NCBI RefSeq assembly: GCF_027744825.2
Contig: NC_071348.1
Location: forward strand, 16,773,563-16,837,562
Length of the DNA stretch: 64,000 nucleotides
Direction of reading: 5' to 3'
DNA from: Synchiropus splendidus
Lineage: Eukaryota > Chordata > Actinopteri > Syngnathiformes > Callionymidae
In this document: piece by piece, positions 42,517 through 44,363 of the stretch
How positions within the stretch are numbered: position 1 is the stretch's first letter
Layout: each line of letters starts with the position of its first letter
The notes under the pieces: generated by a model
Database searches by the model: none
Told to the model about the DNA's origin: nothing
The model's input: only the letters and a program-made list of their open reading frames with translations
Made by a program: the position numbers and the translations under genes

Positions 42517-43407
42517 GAAGTGAAGAGTCAGGTGACCGTCAAGACACTAAAACGGAGCACGTGGCAGAGGTGGTCCGCCGCCGCCCCGGCAAAAGCTTCC
42601 AAGCCGAAGAGGAAGTCAGGCAAGTCCGCCAGTTCTGGACCGAGTGTTCGCGAGCGCATTGTCAAGATCGTGTCCGCCTCCAACGAGCGTGGAGGTGTGT
42701 CACTGGCCGCCATCAAGAAAGCTCTGGCCGCCGGTGAATACGATGTGGAGAAGAACAATGCTCGCGTCAAGCTCGCCATCAAGAAACTGGTGGCTAATGG
42801 TGTCGTGATCCAGACCAAGGGCACCGGAGCATCCGGCTCTTTCAAGATGAACAAGAAAGAAGCGCCCAAGACTAAAAAAGCCGCTCCTAAAACCAAGGAG
42901 GACGCTGCAGAAAACAGCAGCCACTTGATTCGGCTCGAGGGCAGCCAACTGGCACTATATTATGAAGACCCCAACACGAAGAGGCATAGTGTGACTGTGC
43001 GGTATGAACCGCCTCAGCTTGGCTCTCGCCATACGACCATTTTGCTGTCATACATGTGCATCAGACCTCATGCTCACTCTCAAGGGGCCAACATGTATTT
43101 GGAAAAAGCCAGGGAGTTGAAGCTGCTGCTGGCGGAGAAGGAGCAGGCCTCTGGGTCGGTGCACTGCTTCAGCAAAGACGACGGGGCTCTGTTTGTGGAG
43201 GCTGTTCCCCAGACCGACATCAGCCGGAGGATCACTGCTTTCCAGTATGAGCTGATTCCCAGCCAGGGTACACAAGTGACAACATCTCCCGAGACGGAGA
43301 GACAACTTTCTGCGTGGACTTTTCCAACTCTGCTGCTGAACTGGCGCCACAAAGAAGACACACATGACGGATCTATGAGCCCACGTGGATTAGTGGAAAC
43401 TTTTTAA
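41875..43407 (+). CDS. Chimeric 510-aa frame: Env leader + histone H1 + p53 fragment + unidentified segment
   Basis: One open frame without stops joins four unrelated parts: viral Env leader (residues 1-214), 44 bases of uncertain origin, histone H1 (about 229-343), p53 DNA-binding domain fragment (about 346-395) and an unidentified segment (about 396-510). Relative to copy B, the block 42,517-43,557 replaces 3.8 kb of env (55,222-59,066). If translated, the product would be a membrane-anchored chimera. No host part is a complete protein, so a function is doubtful. The frame may be open because the chimera is recent. Expression cannot be judged from sequence. Confidence 0.8.
   Translation: MNLWDKFWYWKARRWWQFKARQQLAYKEQAKDMQQQTPATISRKQMKRDKMIKEWEKTTRMSPLSLFIIGMLLFILILVIASWSNIVYEHMTHTSSVTRRWKLKTVHCKNCTILTPETREIPLPIATEKNGTQFDQALWMRQAAVYLNIHGAVSGTCQYAEQKSAEQEMTGRAVTAKPRQRQRQSVKSSVNKITEAATILTATIMTIAPTINSQEVKSQVTVKTLKRSTWQRWSAAAPAKASKPKRKSGKSASSGPSVRERIVKIVSASNERGGVSLAAIKKALAAGEYDVEKNNARVKLAIKKLVANGVVIQTKGTGASGSFKMNKKEAPKTKKAAPKTKEDAAENSSHLIRLEGSQLALYYEDPNTKRHSVTVRYEPPQLGSRHTTILLSYMCIRPHAHSQGANMYLEKARELKLLLAEKEQASGSVHCFSKDDGALFVEAVPQTDISRRITAFQYELIPSQGTQVTTSPETERQLSAWTFPTLLLNWRHKEDTHDGSMSPRGLVETF
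42561..42905 (+). pseudogene. Captured histone H1 fragment (N-terminus and globular domain)
   Basis: From about 42,561 the sequence reads as a vertebrate linker histone. The first ~15 bases look like an H1 start (GTGGCAGAGGTGGT, with GTG where ATG is expected) but in another frame, so there is a one-base shift before AAAPAKASKPKRKSGK. The winged-helix globular domain follows at about 42,628-42,861, with the hallmarks SGPSV, SLAAIKKALAAGEYDVEKNN and GTGASGSFKMNKK. The Lys/Ala/Pro-rich tail is cut after about 15 residues. Many H1 genes have no introns, so the lack of introns does not itself show an RNA origin, but the sense orientation and the neighbouring pieces do suggest it. Confidence 0.92.
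42906..43058 (+). pseudogene. Captured p53 DNA-binding-domain fragment
   Basis: About 50 codons match the p53 core domain: HLIRLEG, then EDPNTKRHSVTV, YEPPQLG and TTILLSYMC. This corresponds to about human residues 193-238, ending at the Cys that is a zinc ligand. In vertebrate p53 genes an intron interrupts the segment just after the YEPP motif. It is absent here, so the source was a spliced mRNA. The HLIR and RHSVTV forms favour p53 over p63/p73, and TTILLSYMC is the form I associate with percomorph fishes. The second Cys ligand cluster and all flanking domains are missing, so no DNA binding is expected. Confidence 0.88.
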
Positions 43408-43417
43408 ACGAGAAGGA
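43059..43417 (+). other. Unidentified captured segment between the p53 and Notch pieces
   Basis: The frame continues from p53 for about 70 codons of ordinary-looking globular protein sequence (for example NMYLEKARELKLLLAEKE, then GSVHCFSKDDGALFVEAV and ITAFQYELIP). I cannot name the family. From about 43,270 another frame looks more protein-like (GETTFCVDFSNSAAELAP), so there may be a frameshift or a further joint. The last bases before 43,418 may be 5' untranslated sequence of the Notch mRNA. It is absent from copy B and has no similarity to other viral genes in the window, so a host origin is likely. Confidence 0.55.
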
Positions 43418-43557
43418 ATGCATATTTTCTTTGTGAAACTAACTTTTTTGTTGTCGCTAATAGGACTTACACGAGGCCTAAGATGCTACATGCCCACCGA
43501 GTCGTGTTTGAACCAGGGGAAGTGTGAACCGAGTGCAGACGGGAATGGCGAGTGCAG
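43418..43557 (+). pseudogene. Captured Notch 5' coding exons (signal peptide and start of EGF1)
   Basis: An ATG at 43,418 opens a signal peptide (MHIFFVKLTFLLSLIGLTRG), followed by an EGF1-like start with Cys spacing as in Notch (LRCYMPTESC, NQGKCEP, GNGECR). The 140-base length is close to the combined coding length of exons 1 and 2 of vertebrate Notch genes. It ends in GAGTGCAG, the position where Notch exon 2 ends. The next viral base is the first base after the splice acceptor seen in copy B (59,066). The joint therefore looks like an RNA splice between Notch exon 2 and the viral acc1 exon, although a CAG microhomology switch is also possible. Confidence 0.85.
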
Positions 43558-43728
43558 ATATGAAGACCAAGGTATCGGCTACAAAAGTACCTGAGGGGGA
43601 AGCGAATAAGGAAAACCTCAGGATTAAATTTATGACCTTAATATGGGTGTTCGGCACCATCATAATAATATATGAATCACTTAAGTTTAAAATTACCTAC
43701 TTCTCCAACAGAGAAGATTGGTGTCAGA
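43558..43728 (+). pseudogene. acc1 accessory ORF, copy A, 5' part (interrupted)
   Basis: The viral acc1 frame begins at the ATG at 43,560 and matches the first ~55 codons of the intact copy at 59,069, including the first membrane segment (FMTLIWVFGTIIIIYESL). It is then broken at GGTGTCAG by the 28S rRNA piece. The frame runs on into foreign sequence and stops at 43,835, so only a truncated membrane protein could be made. The 3' remainder of acc1 resumes at about 44,357. Confidence 0.88.
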
Positions 43729-43767
43729 AAAGCTACCACAGGGATAACTGGCTTGTGGCGGCCAAGC
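43720..43767 (+). other. Captured 28S rRNA fragment (domain V, peptidyl-transferase region), sense strand
   Basis: About 48 bases match the universally conserved part of large-subunit rRNA that includes ACAGGGATAACTGGC and TTGTGGCGGCCAAGC, with one visible change (CTACCAC for TTACCAC). Nine bases at its start (GGTGTCAGA, 43,720-43,728) are shared by viral acc1 and 28S rRNA, so the joint lies on a microhomology. The piece is in rRNA sense, like all other host pieces here. Confidence 0.93.
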
Positions 43768-44363
43768 TAACAGAGGGACCTGTATCCTCCTGTCTCTTGA
43801 CAAATATAAATGCAACTGCAGTAGAGGATGGATAGGTCTACGGTGTGAGCAGGTGGACAGCTGTGTTTCCAGTCCATGTGCTCATGGAGGTCTGTGCACG
43901 TCCCTGTCTGGCAGTAGCTACAAATGTTCCTGTCCTCCTGGATACACTGGTCCTCGCTGCCTTAATGACACAAATGAATGTGCAACCACTCCCACCATAT
44001 GTCAGAATGAAGGCTTGTGTATCAACACTCCAGGCTCTTACAAGTGCATTTGCTCCTCGGGGTTCACCGGGCGACATTGTGAGAACTCGTACGTCCCCTG
44101 TTCTCCCTCACCTTGTCTAAATGGTGGCACTTGTCACCAGAGCTCTGAAACCAGCTACTCCTGCCACTGCCTCCCAGGATTTAATGGAACCAACTGTGAG
44201 AACAACATTGATGATTGTCCCGGTCATCAGGGTGCAAATGGAGGGACTTGCATGGATGGAGTCAACACTTACAACTGTCAGTGCCCTCCAGAGTGGACTG
44301 GCCAACACTATACAGAGGATGTGGATGAGTGCCGCCTTCAGCCAAATACTTGTCAAAATGGAG
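43768..44363 (+). pseudogene. Captured Notch EGF-like repeats 3-8 (partial)
   Basis: The frame open from 43,748 to 44,386 encodes the second half of one EGF repeat (YKCNCSRGWIGLRCE), then repeats starting VDSCVSSPC, NECATTPTIC, YVPCSPSPC, IDDCPGH and the start of VDECRLQPNTC. The order and wording match Notch EGF3-EGF8; forms such as NTYNCQCPPEWTG are closest to Notch3/Notch2. Two structural Cys are lost: GHQGANGG has none where one is expected, and GQHYTEDVDEC has Tyr for Cys. Several vertebrate Notch introns should fall within 590 bases and none is present, so the source was spliced RNA. The 3' end meets acc1 at AATGGAG (44,357-44,363), which both partners share. Confidence 0.93.

What the first reader, a model, noticed from the sequence alone, without database searches (positions are those of the whole stretch)
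42517..44356. A retrovirus copy carrying a chain of at least five host RNA pieces
Compared with its sister copy B, copy A has env and part of acc1 replaced by histone H1, p53, an unidentified segment, Notch exons 1-2, 28S rRNA and Notch EGF3-8. All are in the sense direction and short. The p53 and Notch EGF pieces lack introns that their genes should have. Such a chain is best explained by repeated template switching of reverse transcriptase among cellular RNAs packaged with the viral genome. Known oncogene-capturing retroviruses usually carry one gene; a chain of unrelated fragments including rRNA would be a fossil of many switches in one or a few cycles.
Basis: partly seen in the sequence, partly recalled or inferred. 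Interest (0 to 1): 0.95.

Follow-up and report, generated by a model that had tools for sequence, protein, structure and literature searches.

The report
Fish retrovirus carrying host RNA patchwork
In the genome of what is most likely a dragonet fish, a broken foamy-like retrovirus has lost its polymerase and probable envelope genes and carries a string of unrelated host RNA scraps (histone H1, p53, meteorin-like, Notch and ribosomal RNA), probably joined at the RNA stage; two public proteins of such a fish look like products of further copies.

Summary
The chain is real, with corrections. p53 (52/54 aa) and meteorin (69/71) match Synchiropus genes, so the host is probably a dragonet. Joints show a 9-nt overlap (measured) and about 7 and 4-6 nt (inferred). 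One joint falls exactly on a likely viral 3' splice site, so splicing as well as template switching may have shaped the chain. Two S. splendidus proteins named 'histone H1-like' look like gene models of further copies; one ends in the acc1 start plus out-of-frame Notch EGF, though neither shows p53 beyond three residues. H1 differs more from host H1 (21/94) than p53+meteorin from theirs (4/125): stepwise capture, or an unsampled H1 donor. Host DNA was not seen; the search of the window's own genome did not complete. Retroviral gene capture is known; a multi-piece chain with rRNA in a foamy-like virus is a new variant.

The parts
1..34394 (.). 188-bp satellite array, left flank of the tandem proviruses
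   Evidence: the repeat finder: about 180 copies at 188-bp spacing
34395..35873 (+). LTR 1 (5' LTR of copy A)
   Evidence: self-blastn; ends ..GACA before the PBS; exact 5' edge uncertain
35874..35891 (+). primer-binding-site-like 18-mer (tRNA-Lys type by recall)
   Evidence: exact string also at 48895-48912
36309..39941 (+). gag-like ORF of copy A (named by position), 1210 codons, running over the pol deletion joint near 39869; weak macro-domain match near its start
   Evidence: no CCHC motif
39859..40347 (+). rest of integrase (end of core and C-terminal part)
   Evidence: Pfam rve E 1.4e-6, below its cut-off
41851..43407 (+). one open frame of 518 codons: putative Env leader region, H1, p53, meteorin and a tail (first ATG 41875)
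42520..42897 (+). histone H1 piece (possible 5'UTR end, then linker-histone domain)
   Evidence: Pfam E 1.9e-20; PDB H1 E 9e-27; tree
42898..43059 (+). TP53 piece, 54 codons, intronless
   Evidence: 52/54 aa to Synchiropus picturatus p53
   Evidence: PDB 7tl6 E 6.1e-7; 69/71 aa to S. splendidus meteorin-like P0009
43277..43557 (+). unverified host-like piece: 5'UTR-like stretch, ATG 43418, signal peptide and a CxNxGxC EGF1-like start; Notch1-like only by recall
   Evidence: absent from copy B; no PDB hit of note and no Pfam hit
   Evidence: alignment 43555-43731 98.9% to B 59064-59240; splice-site score
43720..43767 (+). 28S rRNA piece; its first 9 nt (GGTGTCAGA) are shared with acc1
43766..44363 (+). 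Notch2-like EGF repeats, intronless; last 7 nt (AATGGAG) shared with virus
44357..47475 (+). viral 3' region of copy A: rest of acc1, 238-codon ORF 44658-45374, 658-codon ORF 45375-47351
   Evidence: 94.8% to B; ORFs
47476..48894 (+). LTR 2, shared by copies A and B
48895..62420 (+). copy B interior: lacks three stretches present in A (gag-like, integrase C-terminus, putative Env leader); pol broken over several frames; host pieces not looked for beyond the A-B and Pfam comparisons
59067..59067 (+). first exon base after the likely acc1 3' splice site (CTTACAG|ATATG) in copy B
   Evidence: rank 9 of 995 AGs by a crude score
62421..63943 (+). LTR 3 (3' LTR of copy B), satellite after it

Best explanation
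Copy A is a defective foamy-like provirus, most likely of a dragonet (Synchiropus), that lacks most of pol and the probable env and in which pieces of at least five host RNAs lie joined in sense: H1, p53, meteorin-like, 28S rRNA and Notch2-like, plus a possible sixth. Shown: identities, orientation, missing introns, borders against copy B, one 9-nt overlap at a joint. Inferred: reverse transcriptase switched between the viral RNA and co-packaged cellular RNAs at short homologies; at the acc1 joint the template was already a host exon spliced onto the viral acc1 acceptor. The chain was probably built in more than one step (H1 first) and was later copied, since two S. splendidus proteins appear to come from other copies. 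The chain is probably mostly passenger sequence.
For: LTR-bounded element with PBS-like site; RT closest to PDB 'Pr125Pol' chains (E 9e-46; next different kind, 4ol8, 8.5e-29; that these are foamy virus is recall). Host pieces. The five identified pieces in sense. Overlaps: 9 nt acc1|28S; AATGGAG at Notch|virus and 4-6 nt of TGTGCA at p53|meteorin inferred from codons. A-B identity upstream of acc1 is exactly CAG, at an AG ranking 9 of 995, and the A side no longer scores as a 3' splice site (-6.8 against 7.9). P0004 holds H1, EDA, meteorin, MKTK (acc1 start) and 15 residues identical to out-of-frame window Notch at 43918-43962. The five block starts that I checked in P0004/P0005 all follow AG in the window, one of them being the acc1 joint itself (AG precedes 136 of 1836 positions), as spliced models of one chain would. 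H1 of the three copies forms one clade (100/99, stem 0.23, tips at most 0.029) in a tree of 26 rows that I picked. Papers (abstract and passages seen): foamy particles contain cellular RNAs (PMC4198681); 27% probability of a template switch within 1 kb (PMC2678077).
Against: No host DNA was seen, so most host-side joint ends are inferred. The 28S match is short (Rfam E 0.16, below gathering). The splice reading rests on one joint and a home-made score; 3 shared bases would also fit template switching. P0004 and P0005 are protein models only: beyond the three residues EDA neither shows p53, and neither shows 28S or the 5' host piece, which I place in their introns; the expected donor after EDA reads GC, not GT, in the window. 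They lie on contigs of different size, but could be alleles or come from two assemblies, and the window copy could be an allele of one. The H1 divergence could mean an unsampled H1 paralogue or a faster-evolving gene. At the viral-only deletion joints overlaps look short or absent by eye.
Confidence: 0.68

Rival explanations
1. The whole chain arose in one reverse-transcription cycle by many template switches; H1 looks old only because its donor is a divergent, unsampled H1 gene.
For: Identified pieces sense and intronless; overlaps at joints; H1, EDA and meteorin in the same order in P0004 and P0005.
Against: Among the 120 of 728 hits listed no H1 outside the two chimeras exceeds 79% identity, although Synchiropus H1s are there (P0012, P0013); 21/94 against 4/125 differences; the acc1 joint looks spliced.
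Confidence: 0.27
2. DNA-level patchwork: processed pseudogenes or filler DNA were joined into a provirus by break repair or by a LINE, not by the retrovirus.
For: Not excluded, as host DNA was not seen; LINE-1 chimeras with 28S rRNA and mRNA pieces are described in mammals (PMC13174262, passages seen).
Against: 5 of 5 identified pieces in sense (1/32 by chance); no A run longer than 6 in the chain; a spliced-looking host-acc1 joint; viral sequence on both sides and in the middle.
Confidence: 0.13
3. The fusion is a selected viral gene: the open frame joins putative Env leader, H1, p53 and meteorin and is expressed for the element's benefit, as in oncogene-carrying retroviruses.
For: One frame of 518 codons runs through H1, p53 and meteorin in their native frames; three in-frame joints have a chance of about 1/27.
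Against: All pieces are truncated; Notch EGF is out of frame with the acc1 start; by reading, and without host DNA, the start of H1 seems frame-shifted; the chance of the frame is not small.
Confidence: 0.1
4. Assembly or library artefact (chimeric cDNA or read joined into the assembly).
For: The window lies in a satellite array, where assembly errors are common (general knowledge).
Against: P0004 and P0005, on S. splendidus contigs of 1.56 and 22.6 Mb, share H1, EDA and meteorin, P0004 also acc1 start and Notch, and both differ from the window in sequence.
Confidence: 0.05

Closest known systems
[quoted passage not shown] PMC5512871, passages seen)
   Same: Long provirus (A about 14.5 kb, B about 16.5 kb; about 17.4 kb there), PBS of tRNA-Lys type (type by recall here), RT nearest foamy type, ORFs between pol and env and after env
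   Different: Copy A lacks most of pol and the probable env and carries host RNA pieces; the word stem 'captur' does not occur in that paper's main text
CrocERV29 with KIT-ligand and CrocERV31 with nectin3 (PMC4299795, passages seen)
   Same: Endogenous retrovirus lineages that took up host mRNA and were then copied; nectin3 replaces env
   Different: One host coding region each; here several truncated pieces and an rRNA
Oncogene-carrying retroviruses with two cellular genes (E26 myb-ets, MH2 mil-myc, GR-FeSV actin-fgr; recall only)
   Same: Host RNA replaces viral genes in a defective genome
   Different: One or two genes with a selected product; here five or more scraps
Feline leukaemia virus with Notch2 (recall; my paper search, listed 5 papers, seen as listing only)
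   Same: Notch taken up by a retrovirus
   Different: There the intracellular part (recall); here extracellular EGF repeats
LINE-1 chimeras with 28S, U6 and mRNA pieces (PMC13174262, passages seen)
   Same: Mostly sense-oriented rRNA pieces joined by RT switching or RNA ligation
   Different: Non-LTR element, extra piece at its end; here inside an LTR-bounded provirus

Membership tests
Foamy-like endogenous retrovirus (Spumaretrovirinae) | RT closest to foamy virus RT | tested here: met
   Best PDB chains Pr125Pol and 7ksf/7kse, E 9e-46 to 1e-43; next different kind 8.5e-29 (copy B); foamy identity of the chains by recall
Foamy-like endogenous retrovirus (Spumaretrovirinae) | Gag without CCHC zinc knuckle, basic C-terminus | tested here: met
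   No CCHC match in the 1210-codon ORF; 15 Arg in 140 residues near its end; only a weak Macro hit in Pfam; gag named by position
Foamy-like endogenous retrovirus (Spumaretrovirinae) | Long LTRs, tRNA-Lys-type PBS, accessory ORFs after env | tested here: met
   tRNA type by recall and by analogy with PMC5512871; the 238- and 658-codon ORFs of copy A have no Pfam match
Foamy-like endogenous retrovirus (Spumaretrovirinae) | Placement inside the foamy clade in a tree | not tested
   No tree with reference viruses was built
Retroviral host-gene transduction | Host RNA-derived, intronless, sense sequence replacing viral genes between LTRs | tested here: met
Retroviral host-gene transduction | A complete host coding region carried as product | tested here: not met
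   Every identified piece is truncated; Notch EGF is out of frame with the acc1 start
Retroviral host-gene transduction | Effect on host cells | not testable with these tools
   No expression or phenotype data
LINE-made processed pseudogene | poly(A) tail and target-site duplication of its own | tested here: not met
   Longest A run in the chain is 6; the chain lies between viral sequence; duplications inside the chain not searched for separately

The most novel reading that the evidence does not exclude
Fish foamy-like viruses can build growing strings of host RNA: the acc1 3' splice site catches upstream host exons from transcripts that run into a provirus, reverse transcriptase adds further cellular RNAs (rRNA included) at short homologies, and the string is copied as a non-autonomous family that gains pieces over time, with H1 oldest and p53, meteorin and Notch newer.
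Probability: 0.28. Interest if true: 0.86.

Novelty: new variant of a known kind. Interest (0 to 1): 0.72.

Why it matters
Retroviral uptake of host genes is best known where the product is selected, as in tumours (general knowledge). Here truncated, partly out-of-frame pieces, an rRNA scrap among them, lie beside a sister copy without them, so several joints can be read almost base by base on the viral side. That makes the old question of how host RNA enters retroviral genomes (read-through and splicing against pure template switching, one cycle against many) testable in a living fish lineage that probably holds further copies. It also suggests that 'histone H1-like' gene models in a public fish genome are pieces of a provirus.

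Tried and rejected
Rejected: 'unidentified segment' as unknown (it is meteorin-like). Rejected: that the two Notch-like pieces must come from one provirus inside one Notch gene; the 5' piece could not be shown to be Notch at all and by recall looks Notch1-like, while the EGF piece is nearest Notch2.

Led nowhere: relatives of the 658-codon ORF and of RT in viral contigs (45 and 1 pattern matches, none confirmed); phage DNA search (no match); NCBIfam (nothing relevant); LTR distances (5.4, 2.6, 4.0%) form a mosaic and give no age. In the dN/dS table the Env row was out of frame and is discarded; the other rows (658-codon ORF 0.51, 238-codon ORF 0.29, gag C part 0.39; acc1 tail 6 replacement and no silent changes) hint at most at mild constraint. 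A single-sequence fold of the possible Gag macro domain was unusable (mean pLDDT 37), so no fold search was made. Paper searches: 10 of 10 used; two searches listed nothing relevant. Listed hits: 120 of 728, 120 of 185, 24 of 24.
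Full report
Setting. Positions 1 to about 34394 are a 188-bp satellite (about 180 copies). From 34395 to about 63943 lie two proviruses in tandem that share the middle LTR: copy A about 34395-48894, copy B about 47476-63943. Satellite resumes after that. No clear target-site duplication was seen at the outer edges by eye, and LTR distances are a mosaic, so the tandem is probably a recombinant. RT of copy B matches PDB 'Pr125Pol' chains best (E 9e-46). A PBS-like 18-mer follows LTR 1 and LTR 2. 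The layout resembles the fish foamy-like elements of PMC5512871 (passages seen); a 17-kb foamy virus that may still be active is reported in a swordtail fish (PMC12642411, passages seen). The names gag, env and acc1 go by position: outside RT, RNase H and integrase, Pfam gave no clear match to viral proteins.

Both copies are broken. Against B, copy A lacks B 50867-53524 (up to the integrase), B 55225-59063 (probable env) and B 59241-59297 (part of acc1). Against A, copy B lacks A 36069-38028, 40050-40625 and 41799-42178. B's pol is also split over several frames. So the sister is a yardstick for the missing parts, not an intact parent.

The chain, left to right. (1) 42520-42897 histone H1: Pfam linker histone E 1.9e-20, PDB E 9e-27. 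(2) 42898-43059 TP53: 52 of 54 residues as in S. picturatus p53, 42 of 54 in the two other p53s aligned. (3) about 43055-43276 meteorin-like: 69 of 71 as in S. splendidus, 54 and 55 of 71 in the two other fish aligned. (4) 43277-43557 an ATG, signal peptide and EGF1-like start: unverified. (5) 43558-43728 viral acc1 (98.9% to B). (6) 43720-43767 28S: the string 43735-43767 is found once, 0 expected, in register with the LSU model but weak as a model hit (E 0.16). (7) 43766-44363 Notch EGF repeats, nearest Notch2 among proteins of 116-371 aa (122 of 178 residues with P0124). Then virus again. The identities in (2) and (3) point to a Synchiropus host. The window's origin was not given and its own genome could not be searched.

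RNA stage. The five identified pieces read in sense; p53, meteorin and Notch align to proteins without gaps over 54, 71 and 178 residues. The places where introns should lie are recalled from human TP53 and NOTCH genes, not from a call. Overlaps at joints: 9 nt GGTGTCAGA at acc1|28S, with copy B and the Rfam consensus as parents; AATGGAG (7 nt) at Notch|virus and 4-6 nt of TGTGCA at p53|meteorin, where the host side is inferred from codons. There is no A run over 6. Foamy virus particles contain cellular RNAs (PMC4198681, abstract and passages), and a template switch within 1 kb was put at 27% (PMC2678077, abstract and passages). The same paper notes that foamy RT deletions do not necessarily involve repeats, which fits the viral-only deletion joints here, where overlaps look short or absent by eye.

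A spliced joint. Copies A and B are identical from CAG|ATATG onwards and differ directly upstream (identity 3 nt). In B this is CTTATGTCTTACAG|ATATG, rank 9 of 995 AGs by a crude 3'-splice-site score (7.9); the A side scores -6.8. The acc1 start codon follows. If the host piece is Notch-like, its end also falls at the exon 2/3 border known from human NOTCH1 and NOTCH3 (recall). The simplest reading is a host exon spliced onto the viral acceptor in a read-through transcript that later served as a template. Three shared bases could also be microhomology, so this is an inference.

Further copies. The database search with the H1-p53-meteorin peptide (728 hits, 120 listed) gave two S. splendidus proteins on top: P0004 (189 aa, contig 1.56 Mb) and P0005 (241 aa, contig 22.6 Mb), each with PF00538 (linker histone) and PF27640, which the meteorin-like proteins of the list also bear. 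P0004 reads H1, EDA (the p53 start), meteorin to RLHSGP, D-MKTK (acc1 start), then LQMFLSSWIHWSSLP, which equals window 43918-43962 at 15 of 15 in a frame that is not the Notch frame. P0005 reads H1, EDA and meteorin, with ends that found no match in the window. In the window the five block starts that I checked for P0004/P0005 are preceded by AG (background 136 of 1836; one of the five is the acc1 joint itself), and GT follows MKTK, but GC rather than GT follows EDA. I read both as spliced gene models of further copies of the chain. Their DNA was not seen; p53 beyond EDA, 28S and the 5' host piece would lie in the introns. P0004 and P0005 differ from each other and from the window copy, but alleles (mandarinfish heterozygosity 1.2-1.3%, PMC8664458, passages seen) or two assemblies are not excluded.

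One burst or steps. H1 of the three copies is one clade (100/99) with a long stem (0.23) and short tips (at most 0.029) in a tree of 26 rows that I picked from the list. The window H1 differs from S. splendidus H1 at 21 of 94 residues, against 4 of 125 for p53 (S. picturatus) plus meteorin (S. splendidus) (P 1.7e-5). Either H1 was taken up long before the rest, or it came from an H1 gene or host not in the database, or H1 evolves faster.

Function. One frame of 518 codons runs from the putative Env leader region through H1, p53 and meteorin. Three in-frame joints have a chance of about 1 in 27, so this is weak evidence for selection. The pieces are truncated and Notch EGF is out of frame with acc1. 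I take the chain as mainly passenger sequence.

Known and new. Uptake of single host mRNAs by endogenous retroviruses, followed by copying, is documented in crocodilians (PMC4299795, abstract and passages). Two-gene viruses and FeLV-Notch2 are recalled. LINE-1 joins 28S pieces (PMC13174262, passages). In the listings of my searches I saw no report of a chain of five or more pieces with rRNA in a retrovirus, and none of host-gene capture in a fish foamy-like element; that is limited to this open-access library, those terms and the rows listed. I call it a new variant of a known kind.

Noticed in passing
36309-37160: The start of the gag-like ORF of copy A resembles a macro domain (Pfam E 0.0025 and 0.011, below cut-off; PDB 9w48 E 0.0068). 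A review mentions macro-domain ORFs in epsilon-like fish ERVs (PMC4977317, passages seen). Single-sequence fold unusable.
   Followed up: partly
45375-47351 and 60316-62292: A 658-codon ORF before the 3' LTR, open in both copies, without a Pfam match and without confirmed relatives in viral contigs.
   Followed up: partly
48895-55224: Copy B lacks three viral stretches present in A; a long frame (53549-55039) runs over two of these joints.
   Followed up: partly
34395-36068, 47476-49089, 62421-63944: The three LTRs are mosaics: over the first 200 columns LTR2 and LTR3 agree (1%) while LTR1 differs (8-9%); overall LTR1 and LTR3 agree best (2.6%).
   Followed up: partly
38319-38515: A 63-bp tandem repeat (about three units) in the proline-rich part of the gag-like ORF of copy A.
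   Followed up: no
P0004 and P0005 (public S. splendidus proteins): Proteins named histone H1-like and H1.2-like in the public annotation are probably products of chimeric proviruses.
   Followed up: partly
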